Positions 3,800-64,000 of a stretch of DNA of 64,000 nucleotides are shown here, in pieces; within the stretch, counting starts at the first letter, position 1, and every line of letters begins with the position of its first letter. This stretch comes from Mya arenaria. Lineage: Eukaryota > Mollusca > Bivalvia > Myida > Myidae. Location: contig NC_069134.1 of NCBI RefSeq assembly GCF_026914265.1, positions 16,585,205-16,649,204 of the forward strand, written 5' to 3'. The notes beneath the pieces are model-generated. The model ran no database searches. It was not told the DNA's origin and was given only the letters and a program-made list of their open reading frames with translations. The translations under genes and the position numbers were made by a program.

Positions 3800-6700
3800 T
3801 ACCTAACTTGGTAATATCACGTGATAACATCGACTAGCCAATCACGCATAAGAATGAATTCTACTAGGACCATTTTTTTATTAATTGGTTAGCGGATTTT
3901 TTTAAAAAAAATGTTGGACGGGTGGTGCGAAAAAAAAAAGAATTTCATACTCATACTTATTTGTTTACAAAACATGTACATGTATTTTTCATAGCGTTTG
4001 TGGTCAAACCCAAAACCAAAAGATCAAAATAACAACAAACAGGAAAGACATGTTCATAGAATGAATATTGATATGTTCAAATGCTCACTTTGTCATACAC
4101 ATATGTTTGGCTTTATAGTCCAATTTCCTCTCCTACCAATTTCAAATTCAAATGTTATCCTTATATAAGCATTTTATACACGTCCAACTTATAATAGTGT
4201 CACATTTTAAGTCAATATTATTACAAACTTTCAGTTTTACTTTCACTTTTTGTTGCTGTTTTTTGAAGCACATCCTGACTGCAAGAGTTTTCTTATTTGC
4301 AACAATATTTCCAACCTTACAATGAATATGCCTGTGTCTCCTCATTGCTTGGCACTACTTCTTCTCAACAGAAAACGCCCAATGTAACAAATTTCACTGA
4401 CTCAATTATTTATTAAATGGAATATAAAATGTAAATAAAAATGACTTTATATTCAGTAATGAATTCTTCGAAGTAAAGATATTTCTCTGCAGCTTTAACA
4501 AAATCTAAATTACCCCAGATTTTGATTACTTGAATAGTTAGTCTCCATATAATTTGTTTAACAATTTATGCCCCCTGGGACAAACACAGGACAATATATT
4601 TCATCAAAAACTATGATTTATATGTGATTTGTTACCATTGAAACAGACATCAGCCTTGATATCAGTTATTCCAAAACAATAGTTTAAATGCATATGGTAT
4701 GTTGAAAATGAGAATTCATTTTTATGTATGATCTCAGCTCAATTGAGGCCACCATTTTGAAAATAATTTTTAAAACTGCATCATTATGTTGCAAAGGAAC
4801 AGGCAACAGGTGTTACATCATTTCATGTGCGCAAAAAACCAACTGATTTACTCTTTTCAATATTTAAAAAAAAATAAAAAAATACCATTTTTCGATTGGA
4901 GTTTTCGAAAATATTGGGCTGCGGATCCGTAAACCAATTTATTAAAAAAAAGGTATACATACCAAGTAAAAATAATAATGGAAAACTACGACAGAACTGC
5001 GTAAAAAGTTGTAGGCATATCTCCGTCATTTCGGATTAAGATCCACTGACCAAAGAGCAAATGCGATGGCGCAGTGTCCGTCGTCCGTCCGTCCGCATTG
5101 CTTTGTATAACAATCCTTGATAAAGCTAGTTTTTTTTTATATAGCATATATGCACTTTGTTGTTTGTGGAGTGCTATTGTTCCCTGTTTCTTGTTTGTGA
5201 GTTTTTTGTGTTCTATGTCTTTGGCATTTACCCTGTGCCATTAAACGGGGATGGATAATGTTTAAACTTTTGGCTACTGAGCTTGTTTCTGTACTTTTTA
5301 ATATAAATATTGAACACGATATTGCCTTAAGTTTTGCATGTATCTAAATATTTGGTCAAAAGTTACATATACATCCAGACCTACCATGCATGGATTCTGG
5401 CCATCGAACTTGTCAAAGTTGCTATAAAAGAGTTCTTATTCCACCATCACAACTCGTACATAGTAGTAATATATACATGAAACATGCATTTCTTTCAAAA
5501 ATAATGCATGGCAAGATTTTTCTTTGAAATAGGCCAATCTCTTTCAATGAACTTATGAAAATAATAGAACCTCCATTCGTTATCCGAAGTGCGCTAAACG
5601 TATACTATTAAAGATAGATAACCATGAAACTTTGGTTTTTGTAAAAAAAAACAGCATATGCATGGCTCGTGAAAACAATAGAGCGCCCATTTAATGACCA
5701 ACGTTTATTCAACTTATAAAGTAGTAAGATATCCAAGAGACTTCGTTTCCTTTCGAAAACCCTTGGTTGTCTAGTTTATGGCCCTAGAAACTGGCAAAAA
5801 TTAAAGCCGTTTAAAATTCTTCAGACCTTGATTCATTTTGAAAACCAGCCATAACCACCCATGAATGACCTGTTAATAATCTTAAGAAAAGGTAAAAAAT
5901 ATATAATTATGAATACAATACAGACTTTATTTAATATCTGATGGTTACCAAATGTATACGTTAGCGAGATATTCATCAGACCTTAACAATTAGCCATGCC
6001 CGCTCATGCTTGTAGCCATCAGTAAAGTTTGATCGTTATTCAGTATCGTATCCAGTAATTACTACAAAACCTAAATCTAACTCCACTGACAACAGTGTGC
6101 GACCTTGACCTTTGAGAAAGTGACAAAGCTACAGCTGAAGCACGCAGTTTTACTACTATGAATTCCTAATTGACTCCAATGGCCAACGAATGTCACCTTA
6201 AAATTGCAGTTAGTTATACGCCTTCCCGTGTAAGTTACGTGAAAATTGATTAAAGTTCCAGTAATAATTAAACAGTTAAAGATGAGACACGAATTATTGC
6301 TACTCGTATGAGCTCAATATTGAAAGACATTCAGCTATGGATGCGAAAGAACGGCAAAAAAATAATATTCGAATATTTGGTCATTTTTTCGATCTAGTAT
6401 TCGGATATTCGATTACAAAAGCTAATATTTAGAAGTTGTAGTAAACTAGAATTATTCCATATAGTTATAGCCAGGGCTCTTTTTTAACTCTTTTGTGTCG
6501 TAGCCGATACACGCGACGGATCTTGATTCTTTCCAAAATTAGTCTCTGAAATTCCCCTCCCCAACAAAAAACATTTTAAACAAACAAAATACAAACTCGA
6601 ATATTTTCAAATCCAGTGCATTCATTTGTTTTAATAATGCGAAATTAGGTCGGCAAAGATCGTAAATTCCTGGTTTAATGATGTTATAAGCAAACAGAGG

Positions 6701-35459: not shown

Positions 35460-42987
<7,528 letters not shown>

Positions 42988-43386: not shown

Positions 43387-46300
43387 ATGGCAGGATCTTC
43401 AGATAGTAATTATGCAATTCGGTCTAGAAAACATTCCGATGATGTGCAGTCGTTGGATTCGTGGAGTGAGTTGATTCCAGAAAGTCCGAGAAATTTAGGT
43501 GAAACAAGAAGTAGAACTGACATGTTGCTCAGTCCAGCAAAACTGAGCACTATACAGGAACCGCCTGAAGTCAAAATTACTCGGGTAAAACTTAATAAAA
43601 GTATCGAGATGGATAATCCTAACATATCTGCACGTCCATTGTTATTTTCTGTACCTCCGGATCAGTTTGTCGAAAAAACTAATTCCCATGCGAAAATGCA
43701 GCAAAAGAAGCACAAGCGAAGACAAAAACATGAGAATGTTCAACAGGTTTCATCAGATATATCCGATAATTCAGGTCTTTCAGGACAAAGCATTACTCAG
43801 TGTGGGTGCCTGGACTGTAAAGATGCCGGCAGATTAGGAGAACACAACTCACAATTACATTCCAGTCCACATAGGCGAACTGCCTTTTTTAAACCAAATT
43901 ACCTTAAACAGTCTGCTCAACCATTTCAAAACATTTTATCAAAAAGGCAAAGGTCAAAGGAATCATTGGAAAATGAAATAGAACAATCAGAAAAAGTGAA
44001 GAATAAATTATTATCAGTCTGGAATAACGTGAAGTATGGTAAGCAATTCTGTATAATTTTAATGATTTAATGCATATTTGTATCTAATAAACTAAACATT
44101 ACTAACAAAATATGGAACAAAATTAGTGACCATTGAGTTTTTGATATTTTTGTTAACCTTGTGTTCATTCAGTATTTTGTTAGTTGACAAAATTAACACA
44201 AGCCTGCAAGCCCTACAATGGTAAAATGTCTTCCGGGCTTGCTATAATTATGAAATTCATTTAGCAGGGCTTGTTCAAAAATTTGATACCAAGCTAAAGT
44301 ATAAGACTTCAGGCTTGTTTATCCAAAAGTCTAATTTTGATGACTGTTTTCTGCCATTAAAATACAATTGAATACTTACATTTTAATGTGATTTCAACTA
44401 ATTTGACCTCTGTGATTTTTATGGAAATGAACACATACTTGTTCAGTAGTTTGTTCAATAATTCTAGCATTCAAAATCATCTAAACAATTAAAGACTAAA
44501 TTTATTTATCAGTCGTTTTTAAACATTAGCTATTAAACTATTGTAGCAAGGTTTTGAAAAAGGGCAGGGTGCAGCAGAAAAGAGGTTGGCTGTTAATGGG
44601 GAAAAGGGCATTTTGTATCGAGCTGTGATGAATTTGAACATTGACAGAAAATTTATAGTATATATTGAAGTTTCAGCTTCCATATATGTATTGTATGTAA
44701 ATTATGTGTGTATTTTAAGTCATATCATAAGTTTAAATCAAAACAAAAGAAATATTTGAAAAGGACAGGGAACAACACCCTTCCATAAATCTTTAGCTAA
44801 AACCTGTATTACGTTCATATCTTCAGGTTGGACATTGAAGCCAAAGACAAGTTTTGAAAAGGACAGTCCAATATTTCTACTGGGAAGTTGCTACACCAGA
44901 AGACCAGATGGTATTTGTGTTATTCATGTCTGCTTTATAAATCTTTATATAATATTTTTTATTGTTGAAGAAATTAACCTAACAAGATGACAACAAAACA
45001 TGAATCAATGGGAAAATTTAGTTTACATGAAATAGAGGTAGAGGTAGAGATGTAAAGTTAAAACAATAACAGCACCTTCTATCGCCCACCCCTCTACCTT
45101 ACATTCAATGCAGATTTCAAACATAAGATATAATAATAATTATTTCCCCTGTACTTTTGATTGTTGTGTTATATATATTAATTAGCATAATATCCCACAC
45201 TAACATGCATAACCCCATTGTGAATATTTCAGATGATGACCTAGAGCCTGGGTCTGTTGTTCACAATCTCCCACACAGCATGGAGCAGTTTAAACAAGAC
45301 TTTCAGAGTCGACTCTGGTTCACATACCGCCGGGACTTCCAGGCTCTACCTAATACACGTTTTACAACGGACTGTGGCTGGGGCTGTATGCTGCGTAGTA
45401 GTCAAATGATGCTTGCCCAGGCTTTTATTATTCATTTCCTGGGAAGAGGTATGCACTACTTAGTTGTTTCTGTATATGCAATAATACATCTCTGGATTGA
45501 CTACATGTACATGCCACTTTTTTAATAACTAAATTTTATACACAAATGTAATCTTTTTTCCTTAAATAACATCCATGTATATGAAATGTACTGATTTGTG
45601 GAAAATTATATTCTTTATAGTTATGAACTTATTTAGTAAAAAGTTCATTTTGTATACATGTTGATTCAGAAAAGGTGTATGGTGCAATCATTGATAAAAG
45701 GGTCCCCATATTTTTGGCAAATATTCTTCTATTTATTTTTAAAAAATCACATAATTGCATTAAAATGTGAAATGATTCTGAACAATATAAAAATGTTCAA
45801 ATGTTCTGAACGTTTTGTACACTTTTTCAGATTGGAGGGTGCATACTCAGAGCAAAGAACAGGAGACATTCTACCGTATGATCATTCAATGGTTTGGTGA
45901 TTCAAACAGCGACCAGTGTCCTTTCTCTGTCCATCGTCTAGCAGAGATTGGAAAAACCTTTGGCAAACAACCAGGGGAATGGTATGGACCATCATCTGTC
46001 GCCTATATTCTGAGGTATTTCTTAAATAGTGGTACATGTATCTCAAAAGAATACCTTTTTATGCCCCCACAAAGTGGCGGCATATAGGGTTGCCCTTGTC
46101 CGTACGTACGTCTGTCTGTCTGTCCGTACGTACGTACGTACGTATGTCCCGAAGATTGTTTCCGATCTAATTCTTGAAAACCGTTTGTCCAATCCTCACC
46201 AAACTTTAAACACATGTTTGTGACCATAATATCTTGATCAAGTTCGATAGTCATGGAAATCGCTTTAGTCATTTAGGAGTTACGGCCCTTTTTTGCCAAA

Positions 46301-58904: not shown

Positions 58905-61900
58905 TCATTCGACGCAATGGACGCTGTCATCCTCGTGTATAAGCACGTGATCGGAGACACTGTCCTCCCCCTGGTGGCTGGCGGTGGGACTGCTACCACT
59001 GACGTCTGTGTCCCTATCTTCTCCGCAGCTCTCCGTTTCCTCAGCGATATCCTCCGGTTTTTCGGAGTCGGTTGAGGAGTCGTCCTCTGGATGTTCGCCG
59101 TACTGGATGAGGCTGTGGCGGCGCTCCGAGATGTCGATACTCAGCTCCGCCTCCACGTCGTCCCGGGGCTTCTCTGCCAGCTGCTTCCATTTCTTCATGT
59201 TCGACCTGAGAGGGTAAGGGAGAGAGTTGTTAAAATTTATGTAACTTGTATTGTTAAGATGTTGCAAATTATATGTGAATATGACACTACTTGGGGCAAC
59301 ATAAGAAACTTATTCAGACACTAATAGTTGCCGTTGAATTATTATAAACTAGAATTCCGTTAAATGAGTTAATGTTTGAAATAAATGAACTTTTGTAACA
59401 AAAGCGCGGCGTTTTCTAGTGAACATGAATTTTGTTTTAGTGTAATCTTTGAAATGAAGGTCAATGCCAATTAGTGAATATTGCAATCTGGCTTCGTTCT
59501 AGGTTTAAAAAAAATATGAGAAAGAATCCCTAATACTTAGGCCTAAAAAAATAATTGTGTGGTTCGGGTCACCCGACCCTACCTGGAAAATATCGCCGAC
59601 CCTACTGTTTTTTTGGTGCGACTTGCGAAAAAACCCACCCCAGAACGTTGGGAGTTTAAGCTCATAACACCCAAGATGAGTTTCGAAGATGTAGAGATAA
59701 TGTTTTTGTTCGAGCCGGGATCTGTATCCGAGATTGACATGTCAACATCCGACGACAAGGGGCCATGGACCCGTTTGTATGAAGAACAGCTGTACGATAT
59801 TCCTTTCGAACAATTTATCGGGAAATTCTCCGACTTTTCGCTCTTCAGAGTAAGGTATATACAATGGAACAAAATGTCTCTGGATAATAGTATAAGTTTT
59901 CCCACACATAAGATTGAATGCCGGTCTAAATTTAATATACCTCACCCACCACTGCAGGACAAGGCATGACCCTTTTCACTTGTCATGTTGTCAGATGCAA
60001 TCATAAAAAAATAGTTTAAATAAAATAGCAGCAGGGCAAACATACTACTAGTATAGAAAGGAAATATAAAATATTGGGAGTTCTGACATAGGCTGGTTCC
60101 TGACAAAATGTGACTTTCTTTTAAACTGGGACTGAAACCTGGGTATGTTGCCATTTGTACAGTATAATTTATTCCTAACTTTACTTCTTGGAGAAGGGCA
60201 GAGAAATGTTTTGAGATGCTGAAGCAGGTCAGTATTGTCACATTTAATTATCAATATGTTTTGCTTTCGGAAGGTGTGTGACGAATGGCAACAAAACTAG
60301 CAATGACACACCACCTAACTGCAGTGATGCTCAGCAATGTCCTTATATAACCGAAATTCTGTTGAAAAAGGACAAAAACAAAGCAAACAAACCTGTACCA
60401 AACTTTAAAAGAAATAAAAAAATCCCGACCTACCCTACCTATTTTTGGGGACCATGTTACCCGAACCACACAATTTAATTTTTAAGGCCTTAGTACCGTA
60501 ACCATTTTTACTCCATTTGCTAAGAATTCGAAAACAAATGCTCAAGAAATTAAGAGGACATTCAACGTGAATTTTTGTCCAGTTTTATAAAATGAAGGTC
60601 CGTAACTCCAAAGTGAAAAGTATTAGTATGCGATCTGGCTGTTTATCAAACTCTGTGTCGGGATATTAAGCACATACATATCGTAACAAAGTTTGATAAA
60701 TATTTGATTACGAATTTATCAAGTCAGAGAACGGACAAAGTGAATGTGGTCAAATCTGGACAATTAAAGGGCAATAACTCTGATAGTAATGATGCGATCT
60801 GATTGAGTAATCGATATATTACGTCAATCAACATCCTAACCAAGTTTGGGAAACATTGGATGATAAACACTTCAGTTAGAGAGCGAACATACAATATTGA
60901 CGCCACAAACGACGAAAGACAACATTATCCCTAAATGTCCACCATAATCGCAGGCGACATGAAACATAAACCGTTGTCTACACTAGTGTGTGTGTGTGTG
61001 GGTTAGAGGTTTACTCTTAGATGATTACTTGTGTCGACGCAAAGGTCAAGAGTGCCTGGGTCGGCCCTAGGGGTTAATTGGGGAGTGTATATTGTGGGTG
61101 GGTAGAAACCAGTCGCACGGTTAGCTAATTTGGTTAGAGCACCGTGCTAATGCGCCGGCGGTCGTGGGTTCATGCCCCACGCTGTACTCACTTTCCCACC
61201 CAATTAATACTTACAGTGCTCCGTCCTTCATTGGTTTAGTTTCAGGCAGGACCTGTGCCATCAGTTCGTAGCAGGGCAAACAGATCCCCACCAGGAATCC
61301 CACCTGTAACGTACAAACAAACTGTGAAGCTGCTGTCAACTTTTTAAAACCATGATTCATAATAATCGGCACCACTCGTCCATCTCCGCCGTCCGACGAG
61401 CCTCGGATATGCCGGTGCATTAGTAAAAGTAGTTCGTTAAATTATATATTATAATACATGTGTGTTGTATCATAAATGCTTTTCCAATAATATCAACTTG
61501 ACTCCCGGTAAAGTGTATTATTGTAGCATAAATCATACGAGCCGGACAATGGAAGGTACACTTTTCTTTTATCAGCGTAAACAGTGTTGCAGTGGCAACA
61601 TCGTATCAAGATCCATTCAAAATGGTTCTTATTGTATTACATTCGGATGTGTTTACTCTATAAAAAACTTTAAATGAAACCGTGTGACAAGCGTCCTTAC
61701 CTCTAGTTGTGGTAGTTCATGTTTCTTCTCTCTGTCCATCATCGGCATCGGGGTCAGCCCCTTCGCTTTCTCTTCGTCTCCCTGGTAACACACGGGCAAA
61801 GGTCAAGGTTAGGGTGTACAGGAAGTTCAAGCCTTCCACAGTTCAAAAGTCGTTTCAAGGACAAGACATAAAATGTTTAAAACTATCATTTTTTATTTAG

Positions 61901-63696
61901 TTTTGAGGTTCAGTATTAAGCGAGCATAATACATATATCCGTTGCAACATGTGTAGCTGTAATTAGGAGTTGAGCGAATTTTACCGAGGAAGTTTTTATC
62001 AGATTGCTAAAAAAGCATTTGCATTTTTCCGGAAATGTCTTTATACAAAATGAATACGTTTTTGTGTCAAAATAGTCAGTTGTCCAAAATCCGATAAATA
62101 TTCTTTCGTAAAATTTAGTCAACTCCTAATTCCCCAAAACATGTCACAAAGGATGGATGTTTTACTCCCTAAAAAGATTGTTCCTCAAAACTAAATAAAG
62201 CATGAATTTTTAAAACTTTTTTTGAATTTTTTGGCCTTCCCCACCAACTTTTGCATTGTGGAAGGCCCTTAAGGATAAAATACAGCGTTGATTGTATGTT
62301 ATTGTTTTTTTAACATGACGATACGCTGCATTAATAACAAATTATTTGTTAATTGAGCATACTTAAATTCATATTTTTCAAATTTATATTGAAATCTAAT
62401 AATCTAGCAAATACCTATTTGTTTTTGATATACAAACATATGTGATTTACATGCTCATCCGTTTTTCTTAAACATGCAATATTTAGCACTACACTTAAAA
62501 ACGTTAATCAAACTACACATGCATTATCGATCACCAAAATGTTTACAGCGCAGTGCACACCCCTGAAGCAACACCCGAGACTTTAGAGAATTCTAAGGAC
62601 TTGAATGAAGTAGTGTACTTTCTACATGTACTTAGCTATGTTATTCTACACCGTATACGACTCTACACGGTATTGCAGCAACTATACGCAACAATTTAAG
62701 GATACAACGTTTAACATACAAGTATAACAGGAAAACAAGCTCATATATCGCCATATTTTACAACGGTTATTCTTTATTACTTACGATGGATATAATATAC
62801 ATATGTGTTATGTGTGTGCTATAACGCATGTACCCAGCTACGACATTGTGTATTGGTTTCGCATCTTAAATTACATGACTTAGTGTGTGTATACCACGTG
62901 ATAAATTACGTCATATATGCTACGTCGGAAGGCAACATTTTGCTTTAAATGAGGACTTAAATCAAAGATAACTTTTCTTTAACATTACCATTTTAAATGA
63001 AACAAAGGGCAATCTATGCCTCTTAACGAGCCCCGCATTTCGTGTATTACCGAAAATAGATAAAGTCATTAGTTTCATCAAACACTTCGACAAACCTGTT
63101 AACAAAAAACATGTTTTGGCAGTGCTCCGTCAGACGGCCGTATTGTGAAAAGGTTTGTCGAAGTGTTTTAAGAAAGTAAAATCTCAATCAAACTCTGGTA
63201 AAGACCGAGGACAGGGCTCCGTAAGCTCCGTAGACTGCGCTTTGTTTTATTTAAAATGGTGAAGAAATAGTGAAGTTATCTTTGTTTTAAGTATTTTTTC
63301 AAATCAAAATTTTGCCTTCCGACGTAGCATTTATGACGCAATTTATCACGTGGTATATATATATACATACACACACACTGTGACTGTGATCACGAAACAC
63401 ATAAATGATAAGCGTTAATCCACGTAAGCCTATGATTATGTTTAGACATATGCACACGTCGGATATGTATCATGTTTTTTGCTTTCAAAAGTCAAACGAC
63501 ATTTAAAATGTTTGAGTGGACACACTTTTGAATCACAAACAATGACCTCATTTATGGCAGTGTGTGTTTCCATGGTAACTATACCTGCTGCCAGAATTCC
63601 TCCATGATGACAAAAACAAGGTCGAGTTGCGTAGCCCAGGGTTTGTACATTGCACAAAGGTCACAAGCGGTCATGCATAGGGTCATAACAAGATTT
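58905..63696 (-). CDS. PDE10-like cyclic nucleotide phosphodiesterase, last four exons (partial)
   Basis: Four minus-strand exons join in phase: 63585-63696, 61701-61781, 61215-61303 and 58905-59205 (TGA). They encode the end of the class I phosphodiesterase catalytic domain: MTACDLCAMYKPW with the metal-binding aspartate, EEFWQQGDEEKAKGL, PMPMMDREKKHELPQLE, VGFLVGICLPCYELMAQVLP and the final helix with KKWKQLAEK. GDE..K.G, P.PMMDR.KK.E.PQ and PCY...Q.LP.T.P fit PDE10A better than PDE5, PDE11 or PDE2. A Ser/Glu/Asp-rich tail of about 80 residues follows. The enzymes hydrolyse cAMP or cGMP. The residue just before VGF, at the exon B/C junction, is glutamine in the family and binds the purine ring; here it is Glu. 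The N-terminal part, including any GAF domains and the metal-binding histidines, lies beyond the right edge. Confidence 0.9.
59534..60496. mobile_element. 963-bp TIR DNA element in the last PDE intron
   Basis: Both ends carry an imperfect inverted repeat of about 40 bp: TAC-T-AGGCCT, an A-rich stretch, then a perfect AATTGTGTGGTTCGGGT core at left (59553-59569), mirrored as ACCCGAACCACACAATT at right (60459-60475). Internal CGACCCTACC-type motifs occur near both ends. The target duplication is unclear. It holds one plausible ORF but no recognisable transposase, so it is probably non-autonomous. Confidence 0.8.
59559..59969 (+). CDS. Unrecognised ORF inside the 963-bp TIR element
   Basis: Open for 136 codons from the left terminal repeat to TGA. 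It has no ATG until 59676, so the ATG-initiated product would be 97 residues (MSFEDVEIMFLFEPGSVSEI onward). Composition is normal for a folded soluble protein (Phe, Trp, acidic and basic residues mixed). It has no transmembrane segment and no motif I recognise. It could be a transposon-encoded accessory protein, a captured exon, or chance. Confidence 0.4.
   Translation: MVRVTRPYLENIADPTVFLVRLAKKPTPERWEFKLITPKMSFEDVEIMFLFEPGSVSEIDMSTSDDKGPWTRLYEEQLYDIPFEQFIGKFSDFSLFRVRYIQWNKMSLDNSISFPTHKIECRSKFNIPHPPLQDKA
60985..61001. repeat. Short (GT)n tract
   Basis: About eight GT dinucleotides. Confidence 0.7.
61115..61187 (+). repeat. tRNA-derived SINE head, copy 2
   Basis: Same family as 22093-22167: TTAGCTAATTTGGTTAGAGC (A box), a T-arm GTGGG-TTCATGC-CCCAC (B box), with ACCAG-CGC before and a C-rich stretch after. 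The acceptor arms do not pair, so it is not a working tRNA. It sits in the last PDE intron. Confidence 0.75.
61920..62884. other. PDE intron sequence, nothing recognised
   Basis: Intronic AT-rich sequence without a recognisable element, apart from a GACGCC-free, low-complexity texture. No gene is supported on either strand. Confidence 0.4.
62888..63356. mobile_element. Foldback MITE with long terminal inverted repeats, in a PDE intron
   Basis: The left arm starts TATACCACGTGATAAATTAC then GTCATATATGCTACGTCGGA. The right arm is its reverse complement, ending CATTTATGACGCAATTTATC and ACGTGGTATA. The arms match over roughly 110-130 bp with some divergence. A second inner inverted pair (AACACTTCGACAAACCT near 63080, AGGTTTGTCGAAGTGTT near 63152) sits in the middle. 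Total about 470 bp; no coding capacity. Confidence 0.85.
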
Positions 63697-64000
63697 CTGT
63701 AGGAAACAAACACAGAACTTCAACATTCAAAAGCCCTGTTATCAAACACGCGACCCCTGGGACCCCTAACACAGACCGTTTGTCACTTCCTGTTTGTTAT
63801 TTGACATACATACCAGAACGTGTTATATCAACATATTAATTAAGGTTACAATTTAAAAAAAAATATACTTATATTAGGAAGGCCTATACGAGCAAGGTTC
63901 AGATATATATCATGAAATATTAGAGGTCAAAGTAACCCTACAGAAAGATCGATATAGTCTGTGTTAATGTATCCCAGGTAAAACGTCCTGTTTACCAGTT

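What the first reader, a model, noticed from the sequence alone, without database searches (positions are those of the whole stretch)
61215..61781. Purine-binding glutamine of a PDE10-like phosphodiesterase is glutamate
Aligning by eye to remembered family sequences: PDE10A has E-V-P-Q-G-Q-L-G-F, PDE5 has I-P-S-M-Q-V-G-F, and this gene has E-L-P-Q-L-E-V-G-F. The glutamine immediately before the (V/L)-G-F segment hydrogen-bonds the purine of cAMP/cGMP in class I phosphodiesterases and is nearly invariant. Here the codon is GAG, the last codon of exon 61701-61781 before a good GTAAGG donor. The nearby conserved acidic or polar position after GF is also changed (VGFLVG). The upstream catalytic Asp is kept. 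The enzyme may have altered nucleotide preference, low activity, or act as a cyclic-nucleotide binder.
Basis: partly seen in the sequence, partly recalled or inferred. Interest (0 to 1): 0.75.

Follow-up and report, generated by a model that had tools for sequence, protein, structure and literature searches.

The report
Phosphodiesterase with swapped purine-pocket residue
An apparently intact animal gene for a PDE10-type enzyme, which breaks down the messengers cAMP and cGMP, has glutamate where such enzymes normally have a glutamine that touches the messenger's base, and it carries two interchangeable-looking versions of the neighbouring exon.

Summary
On the minus strand, exon 61701-61781 ends GAG|GTAAGG and joins exon 61215-61303, so LPQL-E-VGF aligns without gaps to the PDE10A glutamine. 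The gene continues upstream of the window; from GAF-B to the stop I joined 14 exons per isoform, all GT-AG, one open frame. Of 25 catalytic columns invariant in nine comparison rows it keeps 24; only this Gln differs. In 13 of 14 other PDE loci found in the genome the residue is Gln; the 14th exon was not found. Three of five paralogs examined have an intron at the same codon boundary. The protein groups with human PDE10A (97/95). The engineered equivalent, PDE9 Q453E, stays active but binds cGMP about 25-fold worse (PMC3069055). I expect an active enzyme with weakened, cAMP-shifted purine recognition. Open risks: a single individual's allele, and weaker in-frame acceptors that would place a Gln before VGF. 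No RNA, orthologue or assay was available.

The parts
63585..63696 (-). Catalytic exon 6B (alternative): RNLVMTLCMTACDLCAMYKPWATQLDLVFVIMEEFWQQ, with the metal-binding Asp; Met at the PDE9 Glu406 position
   Evidence: acceptor tacag, donor gtatag, 112 nt, phase 2 in / 0 out; aligned to PDE10A. Its twin, exon 6A, is outside the window at C13:16649933-16650044, also 112 nt and the same phases
61701..61781 (-). Catalytic exon 7: GDEEKAKGLTPMPMMDREKKHELPQLE, ending in the Glu codon
   Evidence: acceptor accag, donor gtaagg; ungapped to PDE10A; only one copy found in the 60 kb region and in the genome search
61701..61703 (-). GAG codon (Glu) in place of the invariant purine-binding Gln
61215..61303 (-). 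Catalytic exon 8: VGFLVGICLPCYELMAQVLPETKPMKDGA(L)
   Evidence: acceptor ttacag, donor gtaagt, phase 0 in / 2 out. Weaker in-frame acceptors 18 and 36 nt upstream
58905..59205 (-). Last coding exon: end of the catalytic domain (SNMKKWKQLAEKP) and an acidic, Ser-rich tail of about 85 residues to the stop codon
   Evidence: acceptor ctctcag, in frame to TGA

Best explanation
This is a functional gene for a PDE10-family 3',5'-cyclic-nucleotide phosphodiesterase in which one base change (CAG to GAG) has replaced the purine-contacting glutamine by glutamate. The metal site and hydrolysis chemistry are kept. The carboxylate can accept a hydrogen bond from the purine but, while ionised, cannot donate one as the Gln amide does, so purine binding is weaker and cGMP (whose O6 needs a donor) should suffer more than cAMP. 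I expect a working hydrolase with raised KM and relatively cAMP-leaning selectivity. Two apparently mutually exclusive exon pairs give the gene up to four isoforms: one pair varies the start of GAF-B, the domain that binds ligand in mammalian PDE10, and the other varies the catalytic segment beside the Glu, with Ser (exon 6A) or Met (6B) at the position of PDE9 Glu406. Shown here: the gene structure, the substitution, retention of the other invariant residues, and phase-compatible duplicated exons with saturated synonymous change. Inferred: activity, selectivity, and actual use of both alternatives.
For: Canonical splice sites, a single open frame and 14 exons per isoform from GAF-B to the stop. 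PDEase_I at E 4.7e-78 (6A) and 1.6e-78 (6B), GAF at about 9e-17. PDE10A is the top PDB match, gapless at the site. 24 of 25 invariant columns kept, only Q716 changed (nine comparison rows). Groups with hPDE10A and C3a/C3b at 97/95. Same intron boundary in three of five paralogs. PDE9 Q453E: KM for cGMP 0.113 to 2.8 uM, kcat 0.18 to 0.09 per s; KM for cAMP 501 to 1233 uM, kcat 2.37 to 1.30; cGMP/cAMP selectivity 337 to 29 (PMC3069055). The exon pairs: 6A/6B 22 of 38 residues identical with pS 0.82 and pN 0.34; GAF pair 24 of the first 30 identical with pS 0.78 and pN 0.12. Including both or neither of 6A/6B, or both GAF alternatives, breaks the frame.
Against: No activity, RNA or orthologue data. 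One assembled genome, so an allele or sequence error is not excluded. The PDE9 result comes from a cGMP-specific enzyme with a Glu partner at 406 that this protein lacks, so its numbers may not carry over. The PDE9 authors themselves could not explain the cAMP loss. Some alternative-exon splice sites look weak: exon 6A's acceptor has the lowest score of the 16 scored (-10.7) and GAF alternative 1's the next lowest (-4.7), and the donors of both GAF alternatives (gttatt, gtttgc) depart from consensus.
Confidence: 0.55

Rival explanations
1. A weakly active or inactive PDE whose GAF domains or purine pocket act mainly as a cyclic-nucleotide sensor.
For: The changed residue is called critical for substrate binding, with about 25-fold loss of apparent cGMP affinity in PDE9 (PMC3069055). 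The residue two places after GF is also unusual (Val).
Against: 24 of 25 invariant columns are kept, including the His/Asp metal and catalytic residues; pseudoenzymes usually lose these (general knowledge). The engineered PDE9 equivalent keeps half its kcat.
Confidence: 0.15
2. A private allele or assembly error: most copies of this gene in the species carry CAG.
For: Only one assembly and one copy were available. A single base separates Gln from Glu.
Against: The rest of the gene shows no sign of error or decay over the joined exons. A rare deleterious allele is a less likely thing to find in one sampled genome (inference).
Confidence: 0.12
3. Splicing restores a Gln: an in-frame acceptor 18 nt upstream of exon 8 adds FVCTLQ, giving ...LPQLE-FVCTLQ-VGF with Gln directly before VGF. 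Another, 36 nt upstream, adds LTAASQFVCTLQ.
For: Both acceptors are AG and keep the frame without a stop. The insert would fall at the end of the variable M-loop (recalled).
Against: They score -2.0 and -4.4 against +2.5 for the main acceptor (home-made matrix from 16 acceptors of this gene). That matrix gives some homology-supported acceptors lower scores (down to -10.7), so it cannot exclude them. The main junction is the ancestral one by intron position, and any CAG acceptor in phase 0 would 'encode' a Gln, so this is partly trivial.
Confidence: 0.08
4. The Glu serves a different substrate: a carboxylate that binds adjacent N-H donors, giving a re-aimed specificity (for example bidentate binding of guanine N1-H/N2-H, as in guanylyl cyclases, or another cyclic nucleotide).
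For: Chemistry by analogy with guanine-binding carboxylates (recalled). The pocket position beside it is also unusual in both isoforms (Ser or Met; I, V, Q, E or P in the nine comparison rows).
Against: PDE9 Q453E lost cGMP efficiency most, the opposite of a guanine gain (PMC3069055). No change of pocket shape was modelled.
Confidence: 0.1

Closest known systems
PDE10A (human), GAF-containing class I phosphodiesterase
   Same: Top PDB match, 45-46% identity over 291 aligned residues, same tree clade (97/95), GAF-B and PDEase_I domains, all invariant catalytic residues but one
   Different: Gln716 is Glu; +4 residue after the metal Asp is Ser/Met instead of Val; two duplicated-exon pairs; acidic tail
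PDE9A Q453E engineered mutant (PDB 3QI3, 3QI4; PMC3069055)
   Same: Exactly the same substitution at the homologous residue
   Different: Made in the laboratory, in a cGMP-specific PDE9 with Glu406 as partner; 28-29% identity between hPDE9A and this protein
PDE10-like tandem genes C3a and C3b in the same genome (C3:88.87-88.89 Mb)
   Same: Same family clade, same intron boundary before V/I-G-F
   Different: Gln kept; no second copy of the metal-Asp exon appeared in the tblastn of the fetched stretch

Membership tests
Class I cyclic-nucleotide phosphodiesterase (PDEase_I) | PDEase_I domain over the curated cut-off | tested here: met
   262.6 and 264.1 bits against a cut-off of 24.8
Class I cyclic-nucleotide phosphodiesterase (PDEase_I) | Conserved His/Asp metal and catalytic residues | tested here: met
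   H515, H519, H553, D554, H557, H585, D624 and D664 columns kept in both isoforms
Class I cyclic-nucleotide phosphodiesterase (PDEase_I) | Invariant purine-binding glutamine | tested here: not met
   Glu at this column; Gln in nine of nine comparison rows. I treat this as a variant residue, not as loss of family membership, since PDE9 Q453E still folds and hydrolyses (PMC3069055)
Class I cyclic-nucleotide phosphodiesterase (PDEase_I) | Hydrolysis of cAMP/cGMP | not testable with these tools
   needs an assay
PDE10 | Groups with PDE10A in a tree | tested here: met
   97/95 with hPDE10A, C3a and C3b; 10-row tree, human rows typed from recall
PDE10 | Tandem GAF-A and GAF-B domains before the catalytic domain | tested here: inconclusive
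   GAF-B met. GAF-A only as weak exon-sized tblastn pieces (E 0.006 and 0.29) plus an N-terminal piece (0.03) and stretches picked by eye, not assembled. The genome-wide GAF search did not report this gene (1 match, elsewhere)
Mutually exclusive exon pair | Homologous neighbouring exons with the same phases, where including both breaks the frame | tested here: met
   6A/6B 112 nt each; GAF alternatives 155 and 131 nt; frame breaks shown
Mutually exclusive exon pair | Both alternatives found in transcripts, never together | not testable with these tools
   no RNA data

The most novel reading that the evidence does not exclude
A splicing-tuned purine pocket: the Glu is an adaptive replacement for the 'invariant' Gln, and mutually exclusive exons 6A and 6B set its charge state. 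With Ser beside it (6A) the Glu stays ionised and purine binding is weak or re-aimed; with Met beside it (6B) the Glu is driven towards its protonated form, which can both donate and accept a hydrogen bond like Gln, giving a tighter, pH-sensitive enzyme. One gene would then make two nucleotide phosphodiesterases of different affinity or selectivity, coupled to two GAF-B versions.
Probability: 0.12. Interest if true: 0.85.

Novelty: new variant of a known kind. Interest (0 to 1): 0.55.

Why it matters
[quoted passage not shown] A natural enzyme that does without it, with the rest of the active site kept, would be a ready test of what the glutamine is for. If both versions of the neighbouring exon are used, splicing would change the catalytic pocket itself. 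My searches (of one open-access library, read as capped listings) showed no natural Gln-to-Glu PDE and no PDE with mutually exclusive catalytic exons; that does not show that none is in print.

Tried and rejected
Rejected: the Gln two residues earlier (LPQ) as the true purine residue. PDE10A, PDE5, PDE11, PDE2, PDE9 and PDE4 align without gaps from there to (V/L/I)-G/S/E-(F/W), and the -2 position is variable.

Rejected: a pseudogene. The joined exons have no stops or frameshifts and only Q716 departs among 25 invariant columns.

Rejected: a second gene copy or retrocopy that would show the spliced form. The DNA search gave only the gene's own two exons and the protein search no intronless copy; both searches score best candidates only.

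Rejected: a third copy of exons 6 or of the GAF exon, or a second copy of exon 7. None was seen in the 60 kb region at E 0.05.

Rejected: A-to-I RNA editing as a repair, since it cannot turn GAG into CAG (general knowledge).

Led nowhere: literature on molluscan PDE10. One passage shows that a scallop gene annotated PDE10A is a male-specific hub gene in gonad (PMC6708199); it is not known to be this orthologue. Structure prediction was not run: the tool takes proteins that the DNA gives letter for letter, and this protein is spliced from many exons. Other bivalves could not be checked, because no eukaryote collection is on hand.

Full report
The window lies at C13:16585205-16649204 of a 1.2-Gb genome in 18 contigs. 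The gene of the finding is on the minus strand and its 3' end is in the window; its other exons lie upstream, beyond window position 64000. I fetched the 50 kb beyond the window and the window's last 10 kb and modelled the gene from tblastn pieces and splice sites.

Gene model. Seventeen exons were located from just before GAF-B to the stop: 17 of 17 acceptors are AG and 16 of 16 donors are GT. The first of them (gafB_pre) was located but not joined in frame; each isoform joined has 14 exons. Catalytic exons are cat1 C13:16658343-16658432, cat2 16653194-16653344, cat3 16652528-16652683, cat4 16652051-16652101, cat5 16651090-16651211, cat6A 16649933-16650044, cat6B 16648789-16648900 (window 63585-63696), cat7 window 61701-61781, cat8 window 61215-61303 and the last exon window 58905-59205. 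The joined frame has no stop before the end. Pfam gives PDEase_I at E 4.7e-78 (6A) and 1.6e-78 (6B) and GAF at 9e-17 and 8.3e-17. GAF-A was seen only as weak pieces and was not assembled.

The substitution. Exon 7 ends ...CTA GAG|gtaagg and exon 8 begins GTG GGA TTC, giving L-E-V-G-F. PDB PDE10A aligns without gaps across the site. In an 11-row alignment, 25 columns are invariant in the nine comparison rows (six human PDEs typed from recall and three PDEs of this genome); both isoforms keep 24 and differ at Q716 only (the numbering is recalled). Searching the genome with PF00233 gave 42 exon matches that I grouped into 15 loci (a lower bound); of the 14 other loci, 13 show Gln at this site and one exon was not found. 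In C3a, C3b and the PDE4 gene the intron falls exactly after the Gln codon (CAG|GT...), as it falls after GAG here; C12a and C5:3.98 Mb have no intron there. So the GAG codon is the homologue of the Gln codon, one base away.

Family. A 10-row tree (isoform 6A left out) places this gene with hPDE10A and the C3 pair at 97/95, outside the hPDE10A+C3 pair at 97/95. Identity to hPDE10A is 130 of 291 (6A) and 133 of 291 (6B). The C3 pair may therefore be closer to human PDE10A than this gene is; this gene is a deep member of the PDE10 clade.

Duplicated exons. Exon 6 exists twice, 6A and 6B, each 112 nt, with the same phases; joining both, or neither, breaks the frame. They share 22 of 38 residues with pS 0.82 and pN 0.34. 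The first GAF-B exon also exists twice (155 and 131 nt, same phases; both together break the frame); over the first 30 codons 24 residues are identical with pS 0.78 and pN 0.12. Synonymous sites are saturated while residues are kept, which is what two long-used alternatives would show. Against this: in a home-made acceptor matrix 6A scores lowest of 16 (-10.7) and GAF alternative 1 next lowest (-4.7), and both GAF donors depart from consensus. Use of both alternatives is therefore inferred, not shown.

How it may work. PMC3069055 (parts 1-3 of 4 read) made exactly this change in PDE9: Q453E folds normally, loses about 25-fold in KM for cGMP and 2.5-fold for cAMP, halves kcat, and its cGMP/cAMP selectivity falls from 337 to 29. 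The same paper reports, citing others, that PDE5 Q817A loses about 60-fold in cGMP affinity with cAMP unaffected. In PDE9, Glu406 hydrogen-bonds Gln453; 406 and 453 lie 47 residues apart, which fixes Glu406 as the fourth residue after the metal Asp, aligned to PDE10A Val668. Here that residue is Ser (6A) or Met (6B), against V, I, V, Q, E, P, I, I and I in the nine comparison rows. The eleventh residue after the metal Asp, which is Gln775 in PDE5 (recalled), is Gln in both isoforms. I infer that the enzyme is active, with weaker purine recognition that hurts cGMP more than cAMP, and that the two exon-6 choices place a polar or a greasy neighbour beside the unusual Glu.

What could overturn it. 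In-frame acceptors 18 and 36 nt upstream of exon 8 would insert FVCTLQ or LTAASQFVCTLQ and so place a Gln before VGF; they score -2.0 and -4.4 against +2.5 for the main site, but the matrix is too crude to exclude them. The assembly is one genome; an allele or error is possible. No orthologue, RNA or assay could be examined.

Literature. Searches (capped listings) gave the PDE9 mutant but no natural Gln-to-Glu PDE and no mutually exclusive catalytic exons in a PDE. Passages in PMC5617230 (Giardia) and PMC7720076 (Toxoplasma) report the Gln present in those distant enzymes and call it invariant. [quoted passage not shown] PMC13095499 (one passage) repeats the role of the invariant glutamine. 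PMC6708199 (passages) reports a male-specific PDE10A-annotated gene in scallop gonad. PMC11978232 (passages) gave nothing relevant.

Noticed in passing
C13:16661681-16661835 and C13:16660972-16661102 (outside the window): Two homologous GAF-B exons with the same phases and 24 of the first 30 residues identical: a second apparent mutually exclusive pair in the same gene.
   Followed up: partly
C3:88864001-88892000 region, L016 and L017: A tandem pair of PDE10-like genes (C3a, C3b), both with Gln, closer to human PDE10A in the tree than the window's gene.
   Followed up: partly
window 45127-45525 (+): Open frame matching Peptidase_C54 (ATG4-type cysteine protease), E 9.3e-26.
   Followed up: no
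window 40802-41305 and 41876-42190 (-): B-box (E 3.8e-10) and RING-type (E 1.5e-6) zinc-finger frames, probably exons of a TRIM-like gene.
   Followed up: no
window 59544-60484 and 62890-63357: Intronic inverted repeats: 29-nt arms 883 nt apart, and 144-nt arms 82% complementary; look like short DNA transposons.
   Followed up: no
L010 about 2340-2600 and 4440-4990 (-): Tandem repeats in introns of the PDE gene, seen by eye.
   Followed up: no
C9:71790235-71791451: Many tandem copies of a short frame containing 'ICHDLGxPGYNNAY', the HD motif of a PDE9-like exon, in an intron-like array.
   Followed up: no
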